Shown: piece after piece, positions 22,899 to 43,165 of the stretch | Layout of the letters: every line of letters starts with the position of its first letter | Numbering within the stretch: the stretch's first letter is position 1 | Source: an uncultured Polaribacter sp. | GTDB taxonomy: Bacteria > Bacteroidota > Bacteroidia > Flavobacteriales > Flavobacteriaceae | Length of the DNA stretch: 64,000 nt | Direction of reading: 5' to 3' | Assembly: GCA_947497755.1 (NCBI GenBank) | Contig: CANMHT010000012.1 | Location: forward strand, 1 to 64,000 | Made by a program: the position numbers and the translations under genes | Notes under the pieces: generated by a model | The model's input: only the letters and a program-made list of their open reading frames with translations | Databases searched by the model: none | Told to the model about the DNA's origin: nothing

Positions 22899-22968
22899 AT
22901 GAAAAAATAAAAATTCATTTGTCTTTTTATATAGATAAGATAAAGTGTGTACATATAGTCTTTTTCTC

Positions 22969-24639
22969 ATGAAACTCCGCCCTCAATTAAAATCTATCTT
23001 AAAAAGAACATTTTTGCTACTACTACCTATAACTTGTTTAGGTTTAGGAGTAGTTGTTATGGCTCAAAGTGTAAGTGACAACTCAGCTTTGAATAATTTA
23101 TGTAATGTAAACAACAACTTCATTTGCAGATATCTTGGAATAAGTGGAGAAGATGCAGTAAAAAGAGTTCATGACAGTGATAGAGGAAAAAATTTAAAAC
23201 TAACCAATACTAGTAACAAAAAACTATTTGTTCCTAATAAAACAAGGGCTGAACTAGATGCCTTTTTAGCTCAAAAAAACCGATTAGGCGTTACAGCTTG
23301 TGAAGAAGGACTTAGAGATAATGTAAATAGTGTTTTTGGTGGTGGCATAAAAGGTTGTGATCAACAATGTGTAATCACGCCTGTTTATGGGCGACGATGT
23401 AGAGTGAAATCAGGATTTACAGGAAAACGATTAGCAAATACTAAAATATGGATAGATGGTACTGCTTTTGACTGGAGTTCTTCGAATTTAAATGGTAGTG
23501 GTTCTTGGAATGTATTAGATGGTTCTACTAATTACCTCTACAGAGGTAAAAGCAATACTATAGGAGACGGAAATAATCAACGTGATAATTGTGGGCCTTC
23601 TAATGGGCATAATCATAAAGCCGAAATGTATCGTCCAGATAGAGATGGTAAATGGCGTAAATATTGGTGTAGTAAAAGAGGATGTTTTAATGGTTGTGAC
23701 TATAGATGGAGACCTGTATATGGGTTCTCTCCTGTAGCATCTTCAGAACAACGAGTTGTAAATGCTAGTTACAATCCAAATTCTTATGGATACACCTGTA
23801 ATCATACCGAGTATAGGTATTCAGGAACGTATACTACAAGAGATTGTAGCGAAAGTGATACTGAAAACCGACCTCCATTCTTACAGGATGGTAGAACTGA
23901 TGATACCTGCACCACTACTTCACGAAGTTGTTCTGATTATAACTATTGGGCAAAATCAGGAGAATCACACAGAAGTGTTCCTCAAGGTTGTTCTACAGCA
24001 GGAACAAGTGGCTCTAAAACAGGAATTTGTTATAAAAACTGCGGAAGTCAAGATGTAGCAAGTTGCACTTCTTATGATTCAAAATGTGAAGTATACAACG
24101 ATAATTCTGTGACTTACGAGTACTCTTCAAGCTGTACATTTGATTGGAAAATAGCAGCTTCTGGCTGGGGCACATGTAGCACTTACTCTGGAACACAATA
24201 TCGGTCAGTTACATGTAAGGACGAAGCTAACAACAACGCTACTTCAGAAAAGTGTAATGCCAACACTAGGCCTGCTTCAAGACAAGCCTGTACAGCATAT
24301 AAATGGGTAAATGATCGTAATTACTCAGGCTGCACTGCTAGGTGTAATAATTTCAATCCAAATTTCATGAAAAATGACCTAGATGAAACAAATCCATTTG
24401 CCTTTATTCTTGTGAGTGGTGTTGCCAATGCTGAAGATGTATACAACAAAATGATAGCACCTATTGGAGGTACGTATACCGCATACGGTAAAGAATACAG
24501 AAAAGCAAGATGTAAAAAAGTATACGATGGTACAACAACAGCAGCCAACAATAGTTTTTGTACTAATCTAAATAAAAATGAACCTTCAAGAACATGTAGT
24601 ATAACCTGTCAAGGTTCAGGAAATCCAAACCCTTTCTAA
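22969..24639 (+). CDS. Cys-rich secreted protein with ADAMTS-like thrombospondin type 1 repeats
   Basis: 556 aa from the ATG at 22969 (MKLRPQLKSILKRTF); the frame opens at 22945, but this start gives a clean signal peptide (FLLLLPITCLGLGVVVMAQ). It has more than 40 cysteines, very unusual for its neighbours. Near residue 400 the pattern ASGWGTCSTYSGTQYRSVTC, then KDEANNN...SEKCNANTRPASRQAC, follows the ADAMTS subgroup of thrombospondin type 1 repeats (W.GTCS...Q.R.V.C.D......C....RP...QAC). A second, weaker repeat closes the protein (YRKARCKKVYDGTTTAANNS ... EPSRTCSITC). The middle holds further Cys-paired segments without a known family. It is secreted and probably disulfide-bonded. No T9SS tail is visible. 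Confidence 0.7.
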   Translation: MKLRPQLKSILKRTFLLLLPITCLGLGVVVMAQSVSDNSALNNLCNVNNNFICRYLGISGEDAVKRVHDSDRGKNLKLTNTSNKKLFVPNKTRAELDAFLAQKNRLGVTACEEGLRDNVNSVFGGGIKGCDQQCVITPVYGRRCRVKSGFTGKRLANTKIWIDGTAFDWSSSNLNGSGSWNVLDGSTNYLYRGKSNTIGDGNNQRDNCGPSNGHNHKAEMYRPDRDGKWRKYWCSKRGCFNGCDYRWRPVYGFSPVASSEQRVVNASYNPNSYGYTCNHTEYRYSGTYTTRDCSESDTENRPPFLQDGRTDDTCTTTSRSCSDYNYWAKSGESHRSVPQGCSTAGTSGSKTGICYKNCGSQDVASCTSYDSKCEVYNDNSVTYEYSSSCTFDWKIAASGWGTCSTYSGTQYRSVTCKDEANNNATSEKCNANTRPASRQACTAYKWVNDRNYSGCTARCNNFNPNFMKNDLDETNPFAFILVSGVANAEDVYNKMIAPIGGTYTAYGKEYRKARCKKVYDGTTTAANNSFCTNLNKNEPSRTCSITCQGSGNPNPF

Positions 24640-24980
24640 AATAACTTCAATGGTCTTTATAATATACTTTTCTTCAGATACATTGTAAAATGAGAAAATC
24701 CCTATTGACACCCTTTAAAAATTTCCTTATCTTGTCAGAAAAAAATAGCACATTACTCGTTACATTCTAAAATAAGTAATAATTTAAAAAAAATCACTCC
24801 AAATAAATTGAAAATATAAAACAGTTAATTTTCAACAAGATCTTGGATAAGAATTTTATTTAAACAACATATTAAAAGCTTATTTTACATGGGCGTAGCA
24901 ACATTATAACATTAATGAAATAAACACCCTTCATCTAGCGAGAAGTTAGCCACAAGCAAGACTAAACTAATGAAAATCGA
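24640..24980. other. Intergenic stretch ahead of the PHP-ATPase module
   Basis: AT-rich, with no coding frame I can support. Its last 50 bp contain CGAGAAGTTAGCCACAAGCA, just before the start codon at 24981, a sequence resembling the 3' end of palindromic cassette-like repeats seen beside horizontally acquired genes in flavobacteria (see 27683-27700 and 29056-29200). Confidence 0.4.
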
Positions 24981-27296
24981 ATGAATCCAGTATTTCTTGA
25001 CCTACATATCCATACTTCTGATAACCCAAACAATCTGAACCCAAATTACGACATACAATTGTTAGTGGACAATATCAATAAATATACTAATAATTCTACA
25101 TTTTTAATTTCAATTACCGACCACAACACCATTAACAAAACGGTATATCTCAAAGCAAAAGATTTAGGGATAAATATATTGGTTGGAGTTGAGCTTCATA
25201 TAAAAAATTATAGCACCTGTCCACCTTATCACTGCCATATTTATTTCAATTTAAATGAGATTACCGGTGAAATCATTGATGAATTGAACAGCAAATTAGA
25301 TAAGCTATACCCAAACAAAGTTGTTCAAAAAGACGATGAGAATATTCCATCAATAGAAACTGTTATAAACACCTTTGATTTGTATGAGTTTTTGCTTTTA
25401 CCACATGGAGGGCAATCGCATTCTACATTTGACAAATCAATTCCAAATGGTGTTAGATTTGACAGTACGATGGAAAGAAGCATTTATTATAACCAATTTG
25501 ATGGATTTACTGCAAGAGGAAATTCTGGATTGGAAAAAACACAAGACTATTTTAAAAAACTTGGTATTAATGAGTTTGTAAATTTAATGACTTGTACGGA
25601 TAATTATAACCCAATTCAATATCCAAACGCAAAATCCTCACAGGCTAAACCTTTCGTACCAACTTGGATGTTTTCACTTCCGACCTTTAACGGTTTAAGA
25701 TTGTCACTTTCAGAATCATCAAGATTAGCCTATTCAGAACAAAAACCAAAGAACTGGTCAGAAAACATAAGAGCAATAAAACTTTCCAAACCAAATATTG
25801 AAATAGATGTCGAATTAACATCAGGATTGAATGTGGTAATTGGAGGTTCTTCAAGTGGAAAAACCCTATTGGTAGATTCCATAAATAACAAAATCTATAA
25901 TGACTTTTCAAAAAGTAATTATGGACATTTTGAGGTGGAAAAAATAATTATTGAAAACCCTTCAGGTTTGCATCCTCATTATATATCTCAAAACTATATT
26001 ATGAGTATTGTCAACGAGACTACGGACGACAATCTTGGCAACATTGATATAATTAAAAAAGTATTCCCTGGTGATTATACGATACGTGAAAAAGTAGATG
26101 CAGGTCTTTTAAAATTAAAGTTAGACTTAAAAGATTTAGTCAAATACGTTAAAATAATTGAAGACGAAGATAAAAATTTAAAAAAAATACCAATCCTTTC
26201 AAGATTAGTTAACAAACAAGATGTTCAAAAAAATATCATATCGAATCTTTTACCTTCACAAGAAATAATAGACAAAACTGAATATCCGCAACATCAGTAT
26301 AAACAACACATATCAATCTTGGACGAGATTGAAACCCTTTTAATCACTAATCCATTTATTGAGCATAATGAAGATTTGGTTGCTAATCTAAAAGAAGAGC
26401 TTGAAAAGGCTTTCAATATTTCTAAATTCGAAAACAAAACAAGAAAATTAATTCAACTATCTAAATCAGCATATGACGAGCATTTAAAAGCATCAAACGA
26501 AGAAGAACAGTCTAAAAAACAACATTTTGACACACTAATTTCAAGTATTAAAAATTACTCTAAAGCCTATTCACAATTCAAGAGTATTATTGAGAAAATT
26601 TCTGAATATGCAATTCGCTGCGATTCAGAAGTAATCGAATCTATGGGACACAAACTATATATCCAAAATGATTTTAGTTTAACCAAAGAAAAATTTCTCG
26701 ATGTGATTAATTTTTATTTAAAAACTGATAAAAAAGTTATTGACTTTACACAATTAACACCTGAAAACTTATTTTTTGAAAATTTCAAGCAACAGTCGCC
26801 TAAAGTTTACAGTTATGATGATTTTGAAATTAAGGTTAATAAAAAATTTGAAGACTTGAACAAGAAAAAATATAAAATTGAAACGGCAGATGGAAGAGAT
26901 TTCGATAATTTAAGTGCTGGTTGGAAAACGTCTGTAATCCTCGATATCATTTTAGGTTACGATGGAGATATCGCACCAATTATAATCGACCAGCCAGAAG
27001 ATAATTTAGCTACAAATTACATTAATAAAGGGCTAGTAAAAGCGATAAAAAAGATTAAGCCCAAAAAGCAAGTTATTTTAGTATCTCATAATGCCACAAT
27101 TCCAATGTTAGCAGATGCTCAAAACATTGTTTTATGTCAGAATATAGATAATAAAATAAGTATTGTGTCCAGTCGATTAGAAGGTCAAATAGATAATAAA
27201 AACGTACTTGATTTCATTGCAGAAATTACTGATGGTGGTAAACCTTCAATTAAAAAACGAGTAAAAAAATACAACCTTAAACATTTTACAGAATAA
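24981..27296 (+). CDS. PHP-domain/ABC-type ATPase fusion (TrlF-like)
   Basis: 771 aa. The N-terminal PHP metal-dependent hydrolase domain has HIHTSD (His9, His11, Asp14), ITDHN (46-49), a GVELH segment, LPHGG and TCTDN, so a full phosphoesterase metal site is plausible. An SMC/ABC-type ATPase follows: Walker A GGSSSGKT at 288-295, a long coiled-coil middle, a signature-like NLSAGWKT, Walker B IIIDQPEDN at 667-675 and the H-loop VSHN near 702. It resembles TrlF-type PHP-ATPases, some of which are found in defence loci. A stop-start junction (TAA ATG) couples it to the next gene. A nucleotide- or DNA-directed hydrolase driven by the ATPase is the inferred role. Confidence 0.85.
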   Translation: MNPVFLDLHIHTSDNPNNLNPNYDIQLLVDNINKYTNNSTFLISITDHNTINKTVYLKAKDLGINILVGVELHIKNYSTCPPYHCHIYFNLNEITGEIIDELNSKLDKLYPNKVVQKDDENIPSIETVINTFDLYEFLLLPHGGQSHSTFDKSIPNGVRFDSTMERSIYYNQFDGFTARGNSGLEKTQDYFKKLGINEFVNLMTCTDNYNPIQYPNAKSSQAKPFVPTWMFSLPTFNGLRLSLSESSRLAYSEQKPKNWSENIRAIKLSKPNIEIDVELTSGLNVVIGGSSSGKTLLVDSINNKIYNDFSKSNYGHFEVEKIIIENPSGLHPHYISQNYIMSIVNETTDDNLGNIDIIKKVFPGDYTIREKVDAGLLKLKLDLKDLVKYVKIIEDEDKNLKKIPILSRLVNKQDVQKNIISNLLPSQEIIDKTEYPQHQYKQHISILDEIETLLITNPFIEHNEDLVANLKEELEKAFNISKFENKTRKLIQLSKSAYDEHLKASNEEEQSKKQHFDTLISSIKNYSKAYSQFKSIIEKISEYAIRCDSEVIESMGHKLYIQNDFSLTKEKFLDVINFYLKTDKKVIDFTQLTPENLFFENFKQQSPKVYSYDDFEIKVNKKFEDLNKKKYKIETADGRDFDNLSAGWKTSVILDIILGYDGDIAPIIIDQPEDNLATNYINKGLVKAIKKIKPKKQVILVSHNATIPMLADAQNIVLCQNIDNKISIVSSRLEGQIDNKNVLDFIAEITDGGKPSIKKRVKKYNLKHFTE

Positions 27297-27566
27297 ATGA
27301 AACTATATTTTTCAAAAGACGACCAAGATGAGATAGTTGTTAAAATGTCAACTTCTACTATTCAAGAAGATTTTTCGTATGTCGAAATGATTAAAAATCT
27401 ATTAAATAACAATGAATTTGATGAGACAGAATTCAGTAGCGACTTTTCAGATGATGAAAAATCAAGAATCGAAACAATGTTAAGTTCAATCAATGAATCT
27501 ATAGCATCTGAAAATGGAGAAGAAAGTGGAGAAGAAAGTGGAACATCAGAAAATACCAGCGGCTAA
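27297..27566 (+). CDS. Small acidic protein coupled to the PHP-ATPase
   Basis: 89 aa, strongly acidic (about 25 Asp/Glu) with a low-complexity tail (ENGEESGEESGTSENTSG). The ATG follows the stop of the PHP-ATPase directly, so the two are translated together. The first 60 residues look like a small folded domain (MKLYFSKDDQDEIVVKMSTS; VEMIKNLLNNNEFDETEFSS). Likely a regulatory or inhibitory partner, perhaps a DNA mimic, but that is only inference from charge and coupling. No family is recognised. Confidence 0.7.
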   Translation: MKLYFSKDDQDEIVVKMSTSTIQEDFSYVEMIKNLLNNNEFDETEFSSDFSDDEKSRIETMLSSINESIASENGEESGEESGTSENTSG

Positions 27567-27682
27567 AAATGTATAAAACAATAGTGGTTTAATCACTAAA
27601 ACTATAGTAAGTAAATTTAAAAAAGATCTGTACAAATCCGAAAAGTTAGTGTTTCAAAATCCGCTACTATTCTTATACTAGA

Positions 27683-27700
27683 CCGTTAGCAATAATTACA
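27683..27700 (+). repeat. Cassette-like junction sequence before the nuclease gene
   Basis: CCGTTAGCAATAATTACA precedes the start at 27718 and resembles the CGTTAGC-type ends seen ahead of single-gene cassettes in flavobacteria. It fits with 24942-24961 and 29056-29085 as junctions bounding separate gene units. Confidence 0.35.
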
Positions 27701-27717
27701 ATCAACCTAAAAAAGAA

Positions 27718-29052
27718 ATGAACCCAAACGAAAAAAAGGAAATTTTAAAAAATCTAACTGAAAAAGAGTTTAGACAAGATTTGATAATTCCGCTTTTGAG
27801 TAAAATGGAATACATCGCACCAATTGAATATCACGGAACTAACGAAAAAGGAAAAGACATAATCTGCTTTGAATATGATAAACTGAGTGAACAAAGATTT
27901 TTAGCTGTTGTTGCAAAATCAGGTAATTTAACTGGAAATGCCTCTACAAATACAGGACTAATGACAATCGTTAATCAAGTACAACAAGCTTTTGATGTTC
28001 CCTATGAAGACCTTTTTAATATGCGACAGCTTTTCATAAATGAAGTTTGGGTTATGACAACTGGAAAAATTGTTAGCGGAGCACAAGAAACTGTAATAAA
28101 TACTTTAAGAAAAAATAATCTTGATAAACAGATAAGGATAATTGGCGATGATAGATTGATTCAACTAATAGACAAGCATTTCAGTACTTATTGGAATTCA
28201 AATTCTGAAACTAAAGAAAGCGTAATAATTCAGAGAGATAGGCTGTTATCTTTCATAGAAAATTTACTTATTGCAAATAACATCGATAGATCAACAATTA
28301 AAGCTATAAAATCGTCAATATTATATTCTTCTTTCAATCCAAGAATTTCTAAAAATATTGATGGGCTTCATATTTCAAATGTCTCACCTTATTCCATTGA
28401 ATTAGCAAAAATAGATTCAGACTTTGATGATTTTATTGTTTCTAAAACCTATGGAGTAACGAGTGAAATATTTAAAGAAACTAAAAAGTACTTATCATAT
28501 AGTTTCTTTGATATTGAAGAAATAATAGACCATGCCAATAAGATTGCAAAAATGACTAATCCTTCAGAATTTGTTATAGAAACTCAATTGAATATTGCTC
28601 AAGAATACCCATTTCATAGACCTTATGGAAATGCTTCTGATTTTATTGATAATATTGCTTATATGGAAGAAGGTTTAAACGAACTTAAAATCTTTAAGGC
28701 ATTTTTAAAAAGTAAAAATAAATTAGAAGAAGTTAAGGAATTAGCAAAATCGATAACTATCCTGCTACCTGAAATTGAAAATATAATTGAGAATAACAAC
28801 GAGGACAAAATAATCATAAACTACGTTGTTGATAAAGAAGAAAATAAAGTTAAGATTGAATACAATTCAATTGAAGAAATATCTTTTTCTAATAGTTTTA
28901 CAAGAATAATCGAAAAAGGATTTGATAGAAATAAAGACGGAACATTAAAACCATCAAAAATAATCGAATTTGCTCTACATAAATTCCGAGAATACGTTGA
29001 ATCTGAATTAGAGTATGACGAAGATAAGTGGTTGAATGAATACGAAGGTTAA
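27718..29052 (+). CDS. PD-(D/E)xK-like nuclease-domain protein
   Basis: 444 aa. The N-terminus shows restriction-endonuclease-fold logic: an acidic helix (LTEKEFRQDLIIPLLSKM, Glu17), HGTNEKGKDIICFEYD with Asp47, and FLAVVAKSGNLTG with Lys67. This is an E...D...xxK arrangement, as in Mrr/REase-type domains that begin 'E..FR..LI.PLL.KMGY'. The rest (about 150-444) is helical and acidic, of unknown fold. It follows the PHP-ATPase and acidic protein by 151 bp on the same strand. A defence or DNA-surveillance role is inferred from domain type and context. The catalytic triad is read by eye only. Confidence 0.7.
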   Translation: MNPNEKKEILKNLTEKEFRQDLIIPLLSKMEYIAPIEYHGTNEKGKDIICFEYDKLSEQRFLAVVAKSGNLTGNASTNTGLMTIVNQVQQAFDVPYEDLFNMRQLFINEVWVMTTGKIVSGAQETVINTLRKNNLDKQIRIIGDDRLIQLIDKHFSTYWNSNSETKESVIIQRDRLLSFIENLLIANNIDRSTIKAIKSSILYSSFNPRISKNIDGLHISNVSPYSIELAKIDSDFDDFIVSKTYGVTSEIFKETKKYLSYSFFDIEEIIDHANKIAKMTNPSEFVIETQLNIAQEYPFHRPYGNASDFIDNIAYMEEGLNELKIFKAFLKSKNKLEEVKELAKSITILLPEIENIIENNNEDKIIINYVVDKEENKVKIEYNSIEEISFSNSFTRIIEKGFDRNKDGTLKPSKIIEFALHKFREYVESELEYDEDKWLNEYEG

Positions 29053-29055
29053 TAA

Positions 29056-29200
29056 ATATTGCCAACAATAGCTATAAGTAATTGCTTGTTTTCGCCTACT
29101 TCTGAAAATCTTCGCAGACTTTCAACTAAGTGTATACTTGCTAAGTTAAATGATAAACCCATTACTTGACAATTTCGACTTGGATATACAAAAGACTCCT
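29056..29200 (+). repeat. Cassette-like palindromic repeat downstream of the nuclease gene
   Basis: TTGCCAACAATAGCTATAAG, TAATTGCTTGTTTTCGCCTA and TCTGAAAATCTTCGCAGACT begin 4 bp after the stop. The sequence matches, from memory, a family of partly palindromic repeats that follow isolated accessory genes in Flavobacteriaceae. Internal pairing (TCTG...CAGA; AAGTAATTGC with ...ACTTGCTAAG) is visible. It may be a recombination or repeat-insertion junction. Confidence 0.4.
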
Positions 29201-29860: not shown

Positions 29861-30955
29861 TTATTTTTTTAATTCAACTACTTTCTTACGCATTCTCACA
29901 GAGTTATACCATGGCAAAATTTTAAGCACGGTAAAATCTGTTCCATTCACATATAAACAGTGAAGTTTTTTAAGCCCCATAATCTCGTCTGCTCTCATAG
30001 CTGGCATAGGCCGTAGAACTCCATTTATTTCTTCCGTTCTCGTACCTAAGATCTTTTCTATACGCTCACATTCTTCTCTACTTAATTTCCCGAAATACAC
30101 TTGATTCAACATATTTCCAAGGATGGTTTTTAATCCATTCTTGCCATAGTTCTCCTCTATCTGAGATAGCTCTTGAACATAGATAAAAAGAGCAACTCTA
30201 CGCTTTCTTAGTACCGAAACCCACTGTGGAAATTGAGGTACTGTAAAGCTTGGAAACTCATCCCAAAACATCATAATAGAATTGTATTTCTGACCTTCAA
30301 TTGGCATTTTTAAAGCCATTTCTGAAAGCTGCGTAATAAAGATTGAAAGCAAGAAGCGATAGTACCTTTCCTTGCCCTCCTCTAACCTTAGAAATAACGC
30401 TCTCTTTTGAGTTCTAAGCGATGACAAATCTATTGTATCGGTTGATGTTAATTTTTGAATTGTTCTACTCTTAAGCTTACTAAGTGGAGCTTTTGCACTG
30501 GCTAGAATATTGGATTTTAATTTGGGTTCTAACCCCATAAAAGAAGCAAAATCCATATAGTGCTCTTCATCTAAATTTTGCTCCAAAAATTCTATGGCTT
30601 CATTGGGTTTTACTGCTATGAGATTTATTAGATTATACAATCCTAAAAGATTCTTTTTACTTTCATCCTTTTGGGTCTTTGAAAGCAATCCCATAAGCAA
30701 TGTTTCAATGAGTGAAATCGCTGATTGTTCCCAGAAATTTTTTGTTCCTTTGGACTCAGGACAAACAAGCAATTCCGCCAGTTCCTGTATTCCATTATCT
30801 GATTGTGTTGCTCGCTTTAATGGGTTGTATGTATCACTCTCATTTGGGTTTGAGAAATCAAGGCGAGATACAGTATATCCAACTTCCTTGAGATGTTTAC
30901 TTGTCATCATCTCAAGCTCACCAGAAACATCCAAAAAAAAAGAGGCTATATTCAT
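29861..30955 (-). CDS. VirD4/TraG-type coupling protein, C-terminal portion (frameshifted)
   Basis: 364 aa frame covering most of a type IV coupling ATPase: substrate/TraM-recognition-type segments (NFWEQSAISLIETLLMGLLS), Walker B IMMFWDEFPSFTVPQFPQWV, and the downstream RKRRVALFIYVQELSQIEEN and LGNMLNQVYFGKLS motifs. The protein would pump relaxase-bound DNA to a mating pore. The N-terminal part with Walker A lies in another frame at 30918-31199. The two join if one T is removed from a nine-T run (minus strand; A-run 30933-30941), restoring EYSLFFLDVSGEL. As written it is broken; a homopolymer error or slippage would rescue it. Confidence 0.8.
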   Translation of the reverse strand: MNIASFFLDVSGELEMMTSKHLKEVGYTVSRLDFSNPNESDTYNPLKRATQSDNGIQELAELLVCPESKGTKNFWEQSAISLIETLLMGLLSKTQKDESKKNLLGLYNLINLIAVKPNEAIEFLEQNLDEEHYMDFASFMGLEPKLKSNILASAKAPLSKLKSRTIQKLTSTDTIDLSSLRTQKRALFLRLEEGKERYYRFLLSIFITQLSEMALKMPIEGQKYNSIMMFWDEFPSFTVPQFPQWVSVLRKRRVALFIYVQELSQIEENYGKNGLKTILGNMLNQVYFGKLSREECERIEKILGTRTEEINGVLRPMPAMRADEIMGLKKLHCLYVNGTDFTVLKILPWYNSVRMRKKVVELKK

Positions 30956-31199
30956 CCCTTTTTTTAATGTTTACGACATGATTTACAATAGTTGTACTCT
31001 TACCACTTTCGGTTGGTGCAACATATACACAATGAGTAAATAAATGTTTTTCTTTTAAAAACTGTTTACCATCAATACAGTAGCCATTTTTAGTATTACG
31101 ACTAAAATAATGTCGCTTTCTCCACCAATCCATCGGTTTGGCATCCCCGAATTGAGTGTTTTTGTTTCTGTTATTTTTAAATATATAATCGTATATCAT
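30918..31199 (-). CDS. VirD4/TraG-type coupling protein, N-terminal portion (frameshifted)
   Basis: 93 aa frame with the conserved start of mobilization coupling proteins (NTQFGDAKPMDWWRKRHYFS) and Walker A APTESGKST at 61-69. After NIKKRDEYSLFF it runs into GCFW and a stop because of the nine-T homopolymer at 30933-30941. The rest continues one frame away in 29861-30955. The fused protein would be about 445 aa. It is 13 bp downstream of the relaxase gene. Confidence 0.75.
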   Translation of the reverse strand: MIYDYIFKNNRNKNTQFGDAKPMDWWRKRHYFSRNTKNGYCIDGKQFLKEKHLFTHCVYVAPTESGKSTTIVNHVVNIKKRDEYSLFFFGCFW

Positions 31200-41390: not shown

Positions 41391-42563
41391 ATGCCAAAGC
41401 AATATTTAGAAGAAGAAGTACTCACATCTACAAGAAAAAGAATAAAAAAAACCTTTGAAATATTTCCTAAAACATATGTAGCTTTTAGTGGAGGAAAAGA
41501 CAGTACAGTTATGCTTCATCTAGCGCTAGAGGAAGCAAGAAAACAAAACAAACTTCCTTTAAATGTACTATTTATCGATTTAGAAGGACAATATAAAAAA
41601 ACAATTCAACATATTGAAGAAGTCACTCTTGATTCAGATGAAATAAAATTACATTGGATTTGTTTGCCGTTAAACTTAAGAAACTCTGTTAGTGTTTTTC
41701 AACCTCATTGGAGATGTTGGGACCCAGAACAATCAAATCTATGGATTAGGTCAATGCCAAAAAACATAAATGTTATTTCAAATATTGAACAATACCCTTT
41801 CTTTCGTTTCGGTATGGAATTCGAAGAATTTGTTTATAAGTGGGGGAATTGGTTTGCAGGAAAAGAATTATGCACATGTTTACTTGGAATTCGTGCTGAC
41901 GAAAGTTTAAATAGATTTTTTTCCGTCACTAGAAATGGCTGGAAAGGCATAAACTGGATGAGCAAAGCTTCAAATAAATTAATTTTCACATACCCAATTT
42001 ACGATTGGAGAACAGAGGATATTTGGCGATATGTTGGAAAAAGAAAAATACCGTACAATAAACTTTACGACTATTTTTATCTAATAGGAATGTCTATTCA
42101 TCAAATGAGAGTATGTCAACCTTATGGAGATGACCAAAGACAAGGACTTCAATATTTTCATTCAATAGAACCAGAAACTTGGGATCGTTTAATTAAAAGA
42201 GTAAGCGGTGTTAATTTCGGATCTATCTATAGCAGTACTGCTCTCCTAGGAAGAAGAAAAGTTATTCTTCCTGAAGGAATAACATGGAAAAAATACACAG
42301 GAATACTTTTAAACTCAATGCCAGAGATTACAAGAAAACATTATTCTAAAAAAATAATCAAATTTTTAGAATGGTGGGATCAAAATGGATACCCACTTGA
42401 GTTAGTTCCAGATGAAGCTAATTTAAAACTAGAAAATACTGGTAAAATACCTTCTTGGCGAAGAATATGTAAATGCATTATTAAAAATGATTGGTGGTGC
42501 AGAAGTTTAGGATTTTGCCAAACAAAAAACACTTACAAAAACCTATATCAAAAAAAATCATGA
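41391..42563 (+). CDS. IbrA-like PP-loop (PAPS-reductase family, DUF3440) protein
   Basis: 390 aa. The PP-loop SGGKDS at 33-38 (AFSGGKDSTVMLHLALEEAR) binds ATP. The DUF3440 signature CTCLLGIRADESLNRFFSVT, followed by YPIYDWRTEDIWRYV and RVCQPYGDDQRQGLQYF, matches E. coli YbdN/IbrA rather than CysH (no CysH-type C-terminal ECG(I)H motif). IbrA works with the ParB-like IbrB in regulating phage-linked genes; the biochemical reaction is not known. Its stop overlaps the next start by 4 bp (ATGA). Confidence 0.9.
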   Translation: MPKQYLEEEVLTSTRKRIKKTFEIFPKTYVAFSGGKDSTVMLHLALEEARKQNKLPLNVLFIDLEGQYKKTIQHIEEVTLDSDEIKLHWICLPLNLRNSVSVFQPHWRCWDPEQSNLWIRSMPKNINVISNIEQYPFFRFGMEFEEFVYKWGNWFAGKELCTCLLGIRADESLNRFFSVTRNGWKGINWMSKASNKLIFTYPIYDWRTEDIWRYVGKRKIPYNKLYDYFYLIGMSIHQMRVCQPYGDDQRQGLQYFHSIEPETWDRLIKRVSGVNFGSIYSSTALLGRRKVILPEGITWKKYTGILLNSMPEITRKHYSKKIIKFLEWWDQNGYPLELVPDEANLKLENTGKIPSWRRICKCIIKNDWWCRSLGFCQTKNTYKNLYQKKS

Positions 42564-43165
42564 ATTATACTTTCAAAAAAGAAATAATAGAAATCATCAA
42601 AGAAGCTAAAATTTCACCTGATAAAACTGAACAGTTAACAAAAAAAATTAATGAAGTTCTAGATCAATATAAAGAACCTATTTCTTCAATACTATGGATC
42701 CCCATTAGCAAAATAAAATCTAATAATTACAATCCTAATAAAATGGCTACTCCAGAAAAAAAAATATTAACTCGTTCTTTACTATATCATGGAATTACAT
42801 CTCCTTTAGTAGTCCTTCCTGAAAAAGATAAACAGTACTTACTTTTAGATGGATATCACCGCTTTAAAATAATAAAAAGGGAAAAAATACTTAAAGAACG
42901 TCTAAAAAACAAAATTCCAGTAGTTGTATTAAATATAAGTAATGAAGAAGGCATTGTTGCAACAATACGCCATAACAGAGCCAGAGGAAAACATCAAATT
43001 CAACAAATGAGTGAGGTAGTTAAAACCTTAACAGAAAATGGATGGTCAACTAAAAAAATAATGAATGAATTAGGTATGGAAAATGATGAAGTCTTAAGAC
43101 TTAAACAATTTAGTGGACTAGGTAATTTATTTAAAGATGAAGATTTTTCACTCTCTTGGAAATAA
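42560..43165 (+). CDS. IbrB-like ParB-domain protein
   Basis: 201 aa from the ATG at 42560, which overlaps the IbrA-like stop (ATGA). The ParB/sulfiredoxin fold is visible in WIPISKIKSNNYNPNKMATP, SLLYHGITSPLVVLPEKDKQ and LLLDGYHRFKIIKRE, with the phosphate-binding IRHNRARGKHQIQQMSEVV. A C-terminal HTH-like part (MNELGMENDEVLRLKQFSG) follows. Matches YbdM/IbrB; probably acts with its partner as a nucleotide-using regulator. Coupled translation fixes the stoichiometry. Confidence 0.88.
   Translation: MNYTFKKEIIEIIKEAKISPDKTEQLTKKINEVLDQYKEPISSILWIPISKIKSNNYNPNKMATPEKKILTRSLLYHGITSPLVVLPEKDKQYLLLDGYHRFKIIKREKILKERLKNKIPVVVLNISNEEGIVATIRHNRARGKHQIQQMSEVVKTLTENGWSTKKIMNELGMENDEVLRLKQFSGLGNLFKDEDFSLSWK

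What the first reader, a model, noticed from the sequence alone, without database searches (positions are those of the whole stretch)
24981..29052. PHP-ATPase, acidic partner and PD-(D/E)xK-like nuclease: candidate defence system
A TrlF-like fusion of a metal-dependent PHP phosphoesterase and an SMC/ABC-type ATPase is translationally coupled to an 89-aa highly acidic protein, and a protein with restriction-endonuclease-like motifs follows on the same strand. It sits between recombinases and mobilization genes, as defence modules often do. The acidic protein (possible DNA mimic or inhibitor) next to a nuclease-type pair is the part I do not recognise from described systems.
Basis: partly seen in the sequence, partly recalled or inferred. 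Interest (0 to 1): 0.7.

Follow-up and report, generated by a model that had tools for sequence, protein, structure and literature searches.

The report
PHP-ATPase nuclease with small acidic partner
Two neighbouring genes, a predicted ATP-driven DNA-cutting enzyme and a small acidic helper protein, travel together as a pair in many unrelated bacteria and probably form an undescribed anti-virus defence module; the third gene first grouped with them does not seem to belong.

Summary
The three ORFs are real, but the conserved unit is two genes. The 771-aa protein is a PHP-fold phosphoesterase fused to a Rad50/SMC/AriA-type ABC ATPase, related to TrlF and Ppl but far below their curated cut-offs. 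The 89-aa acidic protein belongs to a conserved family absent from the libraries searched. A small ORF abuts the ATPase gene in 63 of 63 full-length relatives with DNA beyond the stop; none of 64 other TrlF-like loci has one that matches. Groups A (with the window) and B form one clade, support 1.0. The third gene is in 0 of 73 loci; T. discolor carries the pair at 95% identity with another gene in that slot. In two other Tenacibaculum genomes the pair looks like one integron-type cassette; in a Sedimenticola MAG it lies beside a true IntI gene. Eight of 64 small proteins, not the window's, end in an SSB-like tip. Most likely: a two-component immune nuclease whose acidic subunit gates or targets it. 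Activity and defence are untested. New variant of a known kind; interest 0.62.

The parts
24981..27296 (+). TrlF-like PHP-ABC ATPase, 771 aa, group A
24981..25739 (+). PHP domain (aa 1-253) with metal-ligand motifs; the His of the last DxH motif is Tyr209 in group A, which has an extra invariant His86
   Evidence: endonuclease Q, Z 14.5 over 212 residues; RNase AM PHP domain, E 2.1e-5
25842..25865 (+). Walker A, aa 288-295
26076..26603 (+). helical, coiled-coil-like insertion between the two halves of the ABC head (aa 366-541)
   Evidence: secondary structure of the model
26985..27002 (+). Walker B IDQPED, aa 669-674
   Evidence: D670, Q671, E673, D674 in 65 of 65
27297..27566 (+). small acidic partner, 89 aa, conserved family; predicted core aa 1-73, disordered acidic tail
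24945..24951 (+). candidate 5' end of the two-gene cassette (GTTAGCC); similarity to T. discolor begins at 24943
27561..27567 (+). candidate 3' end of the two-gene cassette (GGCTAAA; the T. discolor copy has GGCTAAC, the exact complement of its start)
27568..27694 (+). degenerate attC-like spacer ending in GTTAGCAATA, the start of the next candidate cassette
   Evidence: against: its fold is no better than shuffles
27718..29052 (+). 444-aa protein with PD-(D/E)xK-like domain: separate candidate cassette, not part of the module
29057..29066 (+). 3' end of the third gene's candidate cassette (TATTGCCAAC), complementary at 9 of 10 bases to its start
29063..29108 (+). 46 bp shared with T. discolor after a different third gene

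Best explanation
A two-component immune-type nuclease module. Component 1 is a PHP-family metal-dependent phosphoesterase fused to a Rad50/AriA-like ABC ATPase (shown by motifs and predicted fold; nuclease and ATPase activity inferred). Component 2 is a dedicated small acidic subunit made from an abutting or overlapping reading frame (shown). The inferred working: the ATPase dimer with the small subunit bound stays inactive in healthy cells; a phage-made change (DNA ends, ssDNA bound by SSB, or nucleotide depletion as reported for Ppl) lets the ATPase release the PHP active site, which degrades nucleic acid. The small subunit sets where or when this happens. In part of the family its SSB-like C-terminus would dock the complex at SSB-handling sites or act as a plug that SSB can displace. 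In Tenacibaculum the pair appears to move as a single integron-type gene cassette.
For: Pair: small ORF at -26 to +14 bases from the ATPase stop in 63 of 63 loci with downstream DNA (L034 start set). Contrast: of 65 other TrlF-like loci with over 250 bases downstream, 4 have an abutting ORF of 40-150 aa; one (L136) is a group B member with a true partner, the other 64 loci have no match to the family. A plus B form one clade, support 1.0. Catalytic and ATPase residues constant in 65 of 65 (with the bait caveat of the observation check); PHP and ABC folds. Kin: 52 of 52 members scanned (52 of 65) match the TrlF, Spaf_1101 and Ppl profiles and PADLOC's Ppl at E<=1e-5. An ORF like HsdM, HsdS or HsdR in 5 of 41 A and 6 of 23 B loci (one of the 6 supplied the HsdM and HsdS queries). 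Ppl mechanism from passages of PMC12904381. SSB-like tips. Cassette.
Against: No activity, interaction or phage data. The three group A loci whose neighbours I read by eye (L021, L022, L025) show no obvious defence genes. The tip is absent from the window's own partner and from 56 of 64 members. The PHP metal site differs in group A (Tyr209 for His), so its chemistry could differ. No complex was modelled. The link between A-type and B-type small proteins is weak by profile (hhalign E-value 0.0011, probability 20%). The restriction-gene enrichment is modest.
Confidence: 0.6

Rival explanations
1. Toxin-antitoxin pair: the PHP-ATPase is a toxic nuclease and the acidic protein its antitoxin, kept because the pair stabilises a cassette array or mobile element; any phage protection is secondary.
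For: Abutting pair with a small acidic second protein and a disordered acidic tail; presence in a cassette array.
Against: The closest kin lack such a partner (0 of 64 other TrlF-like loci). The partner matches no antitoxin model in Pfam, NCBIfam or PADLOC and no solved fold clearly; this is absence in those libraries only.
Confidence: 0.25
2. A non-immune DNA repair or maintenance enzyme (Rad50/EndoQ-like) with its own accessory subunit.
For: Solved relatives include Rad50, SMC heads and endonuclease Q.
Against: Patchy spread (3 of 349 genomes of the family at E<=1e-20, the window's own counted), cassette carriage, restriction genes beside some relatives, TrlF/Ppl kinship.
Confidence: 0.12
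3. Three-gene system as first read, with the PD-(D/E)xK protein as effector.
For: Same strand, 151 bases downstream.
Against: 0 of 73 loci carry the third gene. T. discolor has another gene in the slot. The third gene has its own complementary ends, 9 of 10 bases.
Confidence: 0.02

Closest known systems
TrlF family AAA-like ATPase (NCBIfam NF045780)
   Same: PHP domain plus ABC ATPase; three annotated TrlF genes read on plasmids
   Different: 189 bits against a cut-off of 350; those three are 873-890 aa without abutting partner, here 771 aa with one; separate clades, support 1.0
Ppl anti-phage protein (NF042955, PADLOC PDLC02208)
   Same: matches in 52 of 52 members scanned; in the window the C-terminal ATPase part aligns
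   Different: 75 bits against a cut-off of 1000; Ppl is described as single-gene (passage)
Spaf_1101 family AAA-like ATPase (NF045781)
   Same: ATPase part aligns
   Different: 101.6 bits against 475
PADLOC candidate PDC-M49A
   Same: 28 of 52 members match; in the window at the PHP and Walker B regions
   Different: weak (window 8.9e-8); the name PDC-M49 is in no paper of the library searched
PARIS AriA (solved, 8v46)
   Same: ABC ATPase fold of a defence sensor
   Different: AriA has no PHP part (recalled); the small protein matches no AriB model among PADLOC's
Integron gene cassettes
   Same: own start complementary to own end and a one-strand array headed by a tyrosine recombinase; true IntI beside the pair in L026
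   Different: the Tenacibaculum recombinase is below the IntI cut-off (116.7 of 265 bits); the window's own ends are worn and its genome has no IntI over the cut-off

Membership tests
TrlF (NF045780) | whole-protein score at or above 350 bits | tested here: not met
   189.4 bits
TrlF (NF045780) | PHP domain followed by ABC ATPase | tested here: met
Ppl (NF042955) | score at or above 1000 bits | tested here: not met
   75.1 bits
Ppl (NF042955) | ssDNA 3'-5' exonuclease relieved by NTP depletion | not testable with these tools
   property reported in PMC12904381, passages seen
PARIS | AriA-type ATPase fold | tested here: inconclusive
   AriA ranks among the best Foldseek hits (E 7.1e-8, TM 0.18 and 0.33), but so do many SMC heads
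PARIS | AriB effector gene beside the ATPase | tested here: inconclusive
Integron gene cassette (pair in Tenacibaculum G760 and T. discolor) | start of the unit complementary to its end | tested here: met
   G760: 10 bases, GTTGCCAGTA; T. discolor: 9 bases
Integron gene cassette (window copy) | start of the unit complementary to its end | tested here: inconclusive
   pair: 6 of 7 bases by eye, and not among the hits; third gene: 9 of 10
Integron gene cassette (window copy) | IntI integrase in the genome | tested here: not met
   no match over the cut-off
SSB C-terminal tip mimic (window copy) | acidic run and hydrophobic-Pro-Phe as the last residues | tested here: not met
   window partner ends SENTSG; 8 carriers (6 strict) of 64 elsewhere
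Any named small-protein family | match to a curated family | tested here: inconclusive
   53 members (52 of the 64 plus L136) scanned on PADLOC, Pfam and NCBIfam at E<=0.01: each listed family matched by one member only; no profile-profile test against libraries

The most novel reading that the evidence does not exclude
The small acidic subunit of these PHP-ATPases is an SSB-tail mimic: in several lineages it has ended up with an SSB C-terminal tip like the host's own, which couples an immune nuclease to SSB-handling machinery (as docking tag or as a plug displaced by SSB), and the pair spreads as a two-gene integron cassette.
Probability: 0.33. Interest if true: 0.82.

Novelty: new variant of a known kind. 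Interest (0 to 1): 0.62.

Why it matters
It adds a conserved second subunit to a kind of enzyme (TrlF/Ppl-like) of which Ppl is described as a single gene, and that subunit matches no family in the Pfam, NCBIfam or PADLOC copies searched. If the SSB-like tip works as in SSB, it gives a direct, testable way to ask how immune nucleases find phage replication sites. Carriage as a two-gene integron cassette would help explain how such a pair crosses phyla.

Tried and rejected
Third gene as a member: rejected. DNA-mimic reading of the acidic protein: not supported, since a folded core with conserved hydrophobic positions is predicted; not excluded. Solved-structure relatives of the small protein: none by sequence (best E 0.16 for group A and 0.041 for group B) and no clear fold match (best E 1.0; best Z 5.4, TolR); that absence is no proof of a new fold. 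Group B small proteins were not folded. Fold of the window's attC-like spacer: no better than shuffles on either strand; the T. discolor spacer is better on the minus strand (3 of 200 shuffles reach it) and less so on the plus strand (15 of 200). Motif counts in the window's own genome show no array like that of G760 and no hit on the window's contig. TIGR02249 at the loose default E-value rings in 14 of 14 control genomes, so only matches over the curated cut-off are called IntI. In one search, 3 of 12 genomes had one; for L059 and L069 it lies on another contig. Viral contigs and phages: no relative of the third gene. Neighbour scan on PADLOC (lists capped at 25 of 243 and 25 of 110 families): REase_I 5, specificity 5 and MTase_I 4 among 106 nearest neighbours, MTase_I 2 among 100 distant ones, which also held single DrmD, BrxF and Cas6b matches; the sets are not matched for size. 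Literature: ten searches listed no paper on such a pair, judged by listings only and in open-licence PMC papers only; none of them named the small protein, for want of a name. I saw passages of PMC12904381, PMC11981726 and PMC10013915, and listings of the rest.

Rows dropped before counts: of 73 loci, 9 without a full-length ATPase ORF (L035, L039, L046, L054, L067, L079, L083, L087, L088) were left out; L058 ends 47 bases after the stop. Neighbour proteins over 700 aa were cut there, so some ends in the 206-protein tip control are not true ends; the uncut set of 817 ORFs in that call holds 5 loose and 6 strict ends, three of the strict ones being the small proteins themselves and two a duplicate (L033/L055).
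Full report
What is there. The three reading frames exist as described. The 771-aa protein has a PHP part and an ABC part. Pfam sees both only weakly, below its cut-offs. In an alignment of 65 full-length proteins (window included) the PHP ligands and the Walker A, Walker B and switch residues named in the observation check and parts are constant; the PHP motifs DLHIHT and TDHN served as bait in the scan, so their constancy is partly by construction, that of Glu71, His84, His142, Asp207 and the ATPase residues is not. The AlphaFold2 model (mean pLDDT 86.6) aligns at residues 2-253 with endonuclease Q (Z 14.5, 212 residues, rmsd 3.8), the one listed row for that part, and at 261-752 with SMC heads (Z 16.4, 227 residues, rmsd 3.3). 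Foldseek also lists AriA of PARIS, Rad50 and the RNase AM PHP domain. In group A the His of the last PHP DxH motif is Tyr (42 of 42) while His86 is constant; group B keeps the His (23 of 23).

The pair. One scan of the genome collection found 73 loci. Of 64 with a full-length ATPase ORF, 63 have enough DNA beyond the stop, and all 63 have a small ORF beginning between -26 and +14 bases of it (L034 corrected). For several loci the start was chosen as the ATG nearest the stop, because the longest ORF began further upstream. Group A partners are 69-101 aa (median pI 4.5), group B partners 91-128 aa (median pI 4.2). Of 65 other TrlF-like loci with over 250 bases downstream, 4 have any abutting ORF of 40-150 aa; one of these (L136, a viral contig) is itself a group B member with a true partner (41 bits), the other 3 do not match the family. 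A tree of 95 ATPases separates A plus B from 29 TrlF-like proteins with support 1.0; B is supported at 0.967, A alone only at 0.485. So the partner looks like a property of this clade.

The small protein. Its predicted core (residues 1-70, block means of pLDDT 85-94) is three strands and two helices, followed by a disordered acidic tail. In 53 members scanned, no Pfam, NCBIfam or PADLOC family matched more than one member. Group A and B proteins share place and length class but only weak profile similarity.

SSB-like tip. Eight of 64 small proteins end in [D/E][D/E/N][I/L/V][P/L]F, 6 of them in D[I/L/V]PF: seven of group B and one of group A (L038). Shuffling the last 20 residues within each protein gives 0.006 such ends per round on average and at most 2 in any of 20,000 rounds. 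Among 206 neighbour proteins, some with cut ends, 0 carry the loose and 1 the strict form; counts for 817 uncut ORFs are in Tried and rejected. On the ATPase tree the state changes 6 times. Host SSB tails, last six residues, SSB then partner: L061 NDDLPF, NDDLPF; L070 EDDLPF, NDDLPF; L080 IDDLPF, DDDLPF; L069 FDDIPF, GDDIPF; L038 IEDIPF, PDDIPF; L073 DEDVPF, DDDIPF; L065 EDEIPF, EDEILF; L082 DDEIPF, TDDILF; and L062, whose tip is outside the pattern, DEDLPF, DANLPF. The I/L/V position agrees in 8 of 9, but Bacteroidota and other hosts differ there as groups, so this is not independent evidence. Of 18 SSB-domain matches, 12 end in such a tip (at least one in each of 11 genomes), 5 paralogues do not, and for one no ORF was found; I quote the tipped one. 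Against the reading: 56 of 64 members, the window's among them (host SSB ENDDLPF, partner SENTSG), have no tip, and L072 has none although its host SSB does. DDDIPF as the SSB-Ct peptide is from a passage of PMC11981726.

Third gene. No relative of it (blastp E<=1e-3) lies in any of the 73 loci. Its first 160 or so residues align with 5 proteins: near the start in L008, L014 (annotated NACHT), L015 and L016, and at the end of a 286-aa ORF in L005; the GxD...K core is kept in all. The rest is unassigned. It looks like an independent gene.

Cassette. Between the window and Tenacibaculum discolor (L017) the DNA held matches only at 24943-27584 and at 46 bp, 29063-29108; the gene between differs. 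In T. discolor the two units each begin with the complement of their own end: GTTAGCCAC for the pair, GTTGTACGCA for the next gene. In a third genome of the genus (G760), 20 attC-like arms of one pattern lie on one strand within 245,171-273,744 and none on the other strand of the 42 kb read; for 16 of 20 the complement of the end (8 bases) lies within 6,000 bases upstream, 2,586 bases for the cassette that holds the ATPase and its partner. In nine units of that array 6 of 9 own pairs and 4 of 72 crossed pairs match at 8 or more bases, and permuting reaches the observed sum in 26 of 100,000 rounds. A tyrosine recombinase (274,302-275,486) heads the array but scores 116.7 bits against the IntI cut-off of 265. 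In Sedimenticola L026 a real IntI (492 bits) lies 177 bases from the ATPase start on the opposite strand. Across 64 units, 9 own-end matches of 7 or more bases compare with 91 of 4,032 crossed pairings; the window is not among the 9. The window's own ends are worn (6 of 7 for the pair, by eye; 9 of 10 for the third gene, where 15 of 4,290 crossed pairings do as well), its spacer does not fold better than shuffles, and its genome has no IntI over the cut-off. A published genome of a near relative, T. larymnensis, reports no integron by IntegronFinder (passage).

Host. G758 is the T. discolor genome by its coordinates and is listed as the same genus as the window's genome, so the window is from Tenacibaculum.

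How it probably works. By kinship with Ppl, summarised in PMC12904381 as a PHP exonuclease held off by nucleotides and switched on by nucleotide depletion and 3' ends (passage), I expect an ATP-gated PHP nuclease. Shown: gene pairing, predicted folds, conserved active-site residues, low dN/dS. Inferred: nuclease activity, gating, defence, and the role of the partner.

Novelty. The ATPase is a new variant next to TrlF and Ppl; the partner family is undescribed in the libraries searched. Ten literature searches listed no paper on such a pair, within open-licence papers only.

Noticed in passing
L196, L200, L201 (G760:C1:240000-282000): Integron-type array of many one- to two-gene cassettes in a Tenacibaculum chromosome, with an IntI-like tyrosine recombinase below the curated cut-off at its head.
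   Followed up: partly
window 29861-31199, - strand: The T4SS coupling-protein gene looks broken: a part with a Walker A-like stretch (by eye) lies in another frame (30918-31199) from the rest (29861-30955, which matches the profile only from position 76).
   Followed up: no
window 41391-43165, + strand: DUF3440/PAPS-reductase protein followed by a ParB_N protein, resembling (recalled) an IbrA/IbrB-type pair.
   Followed up: no
window 22945-24639, + strand: 564-aa Cys-rich protein with a thrombospondin type 1 domain (E 1.3e-6), just upstream of the module.
   Followed up: no
L080:4745-9479: A group B pair (Bacteroidia MAG) sits between hairpin-like spacers; its ends are complementary, GTTGTGCT.
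   Followed up: partly
L026:6858-10572: IntI gene divergent from the ATPase-partner pair in a Sedimenticola MAG: likely first cassette of a true integron.
   Followed up: partly
window 27718-28200; L005, L008, L014, L015, L016: The third protein's PD-(D/E)xK-like domain recurs in other proteins, three of them large and on plasmids, one annotated NACHT.
   Followed up: partly
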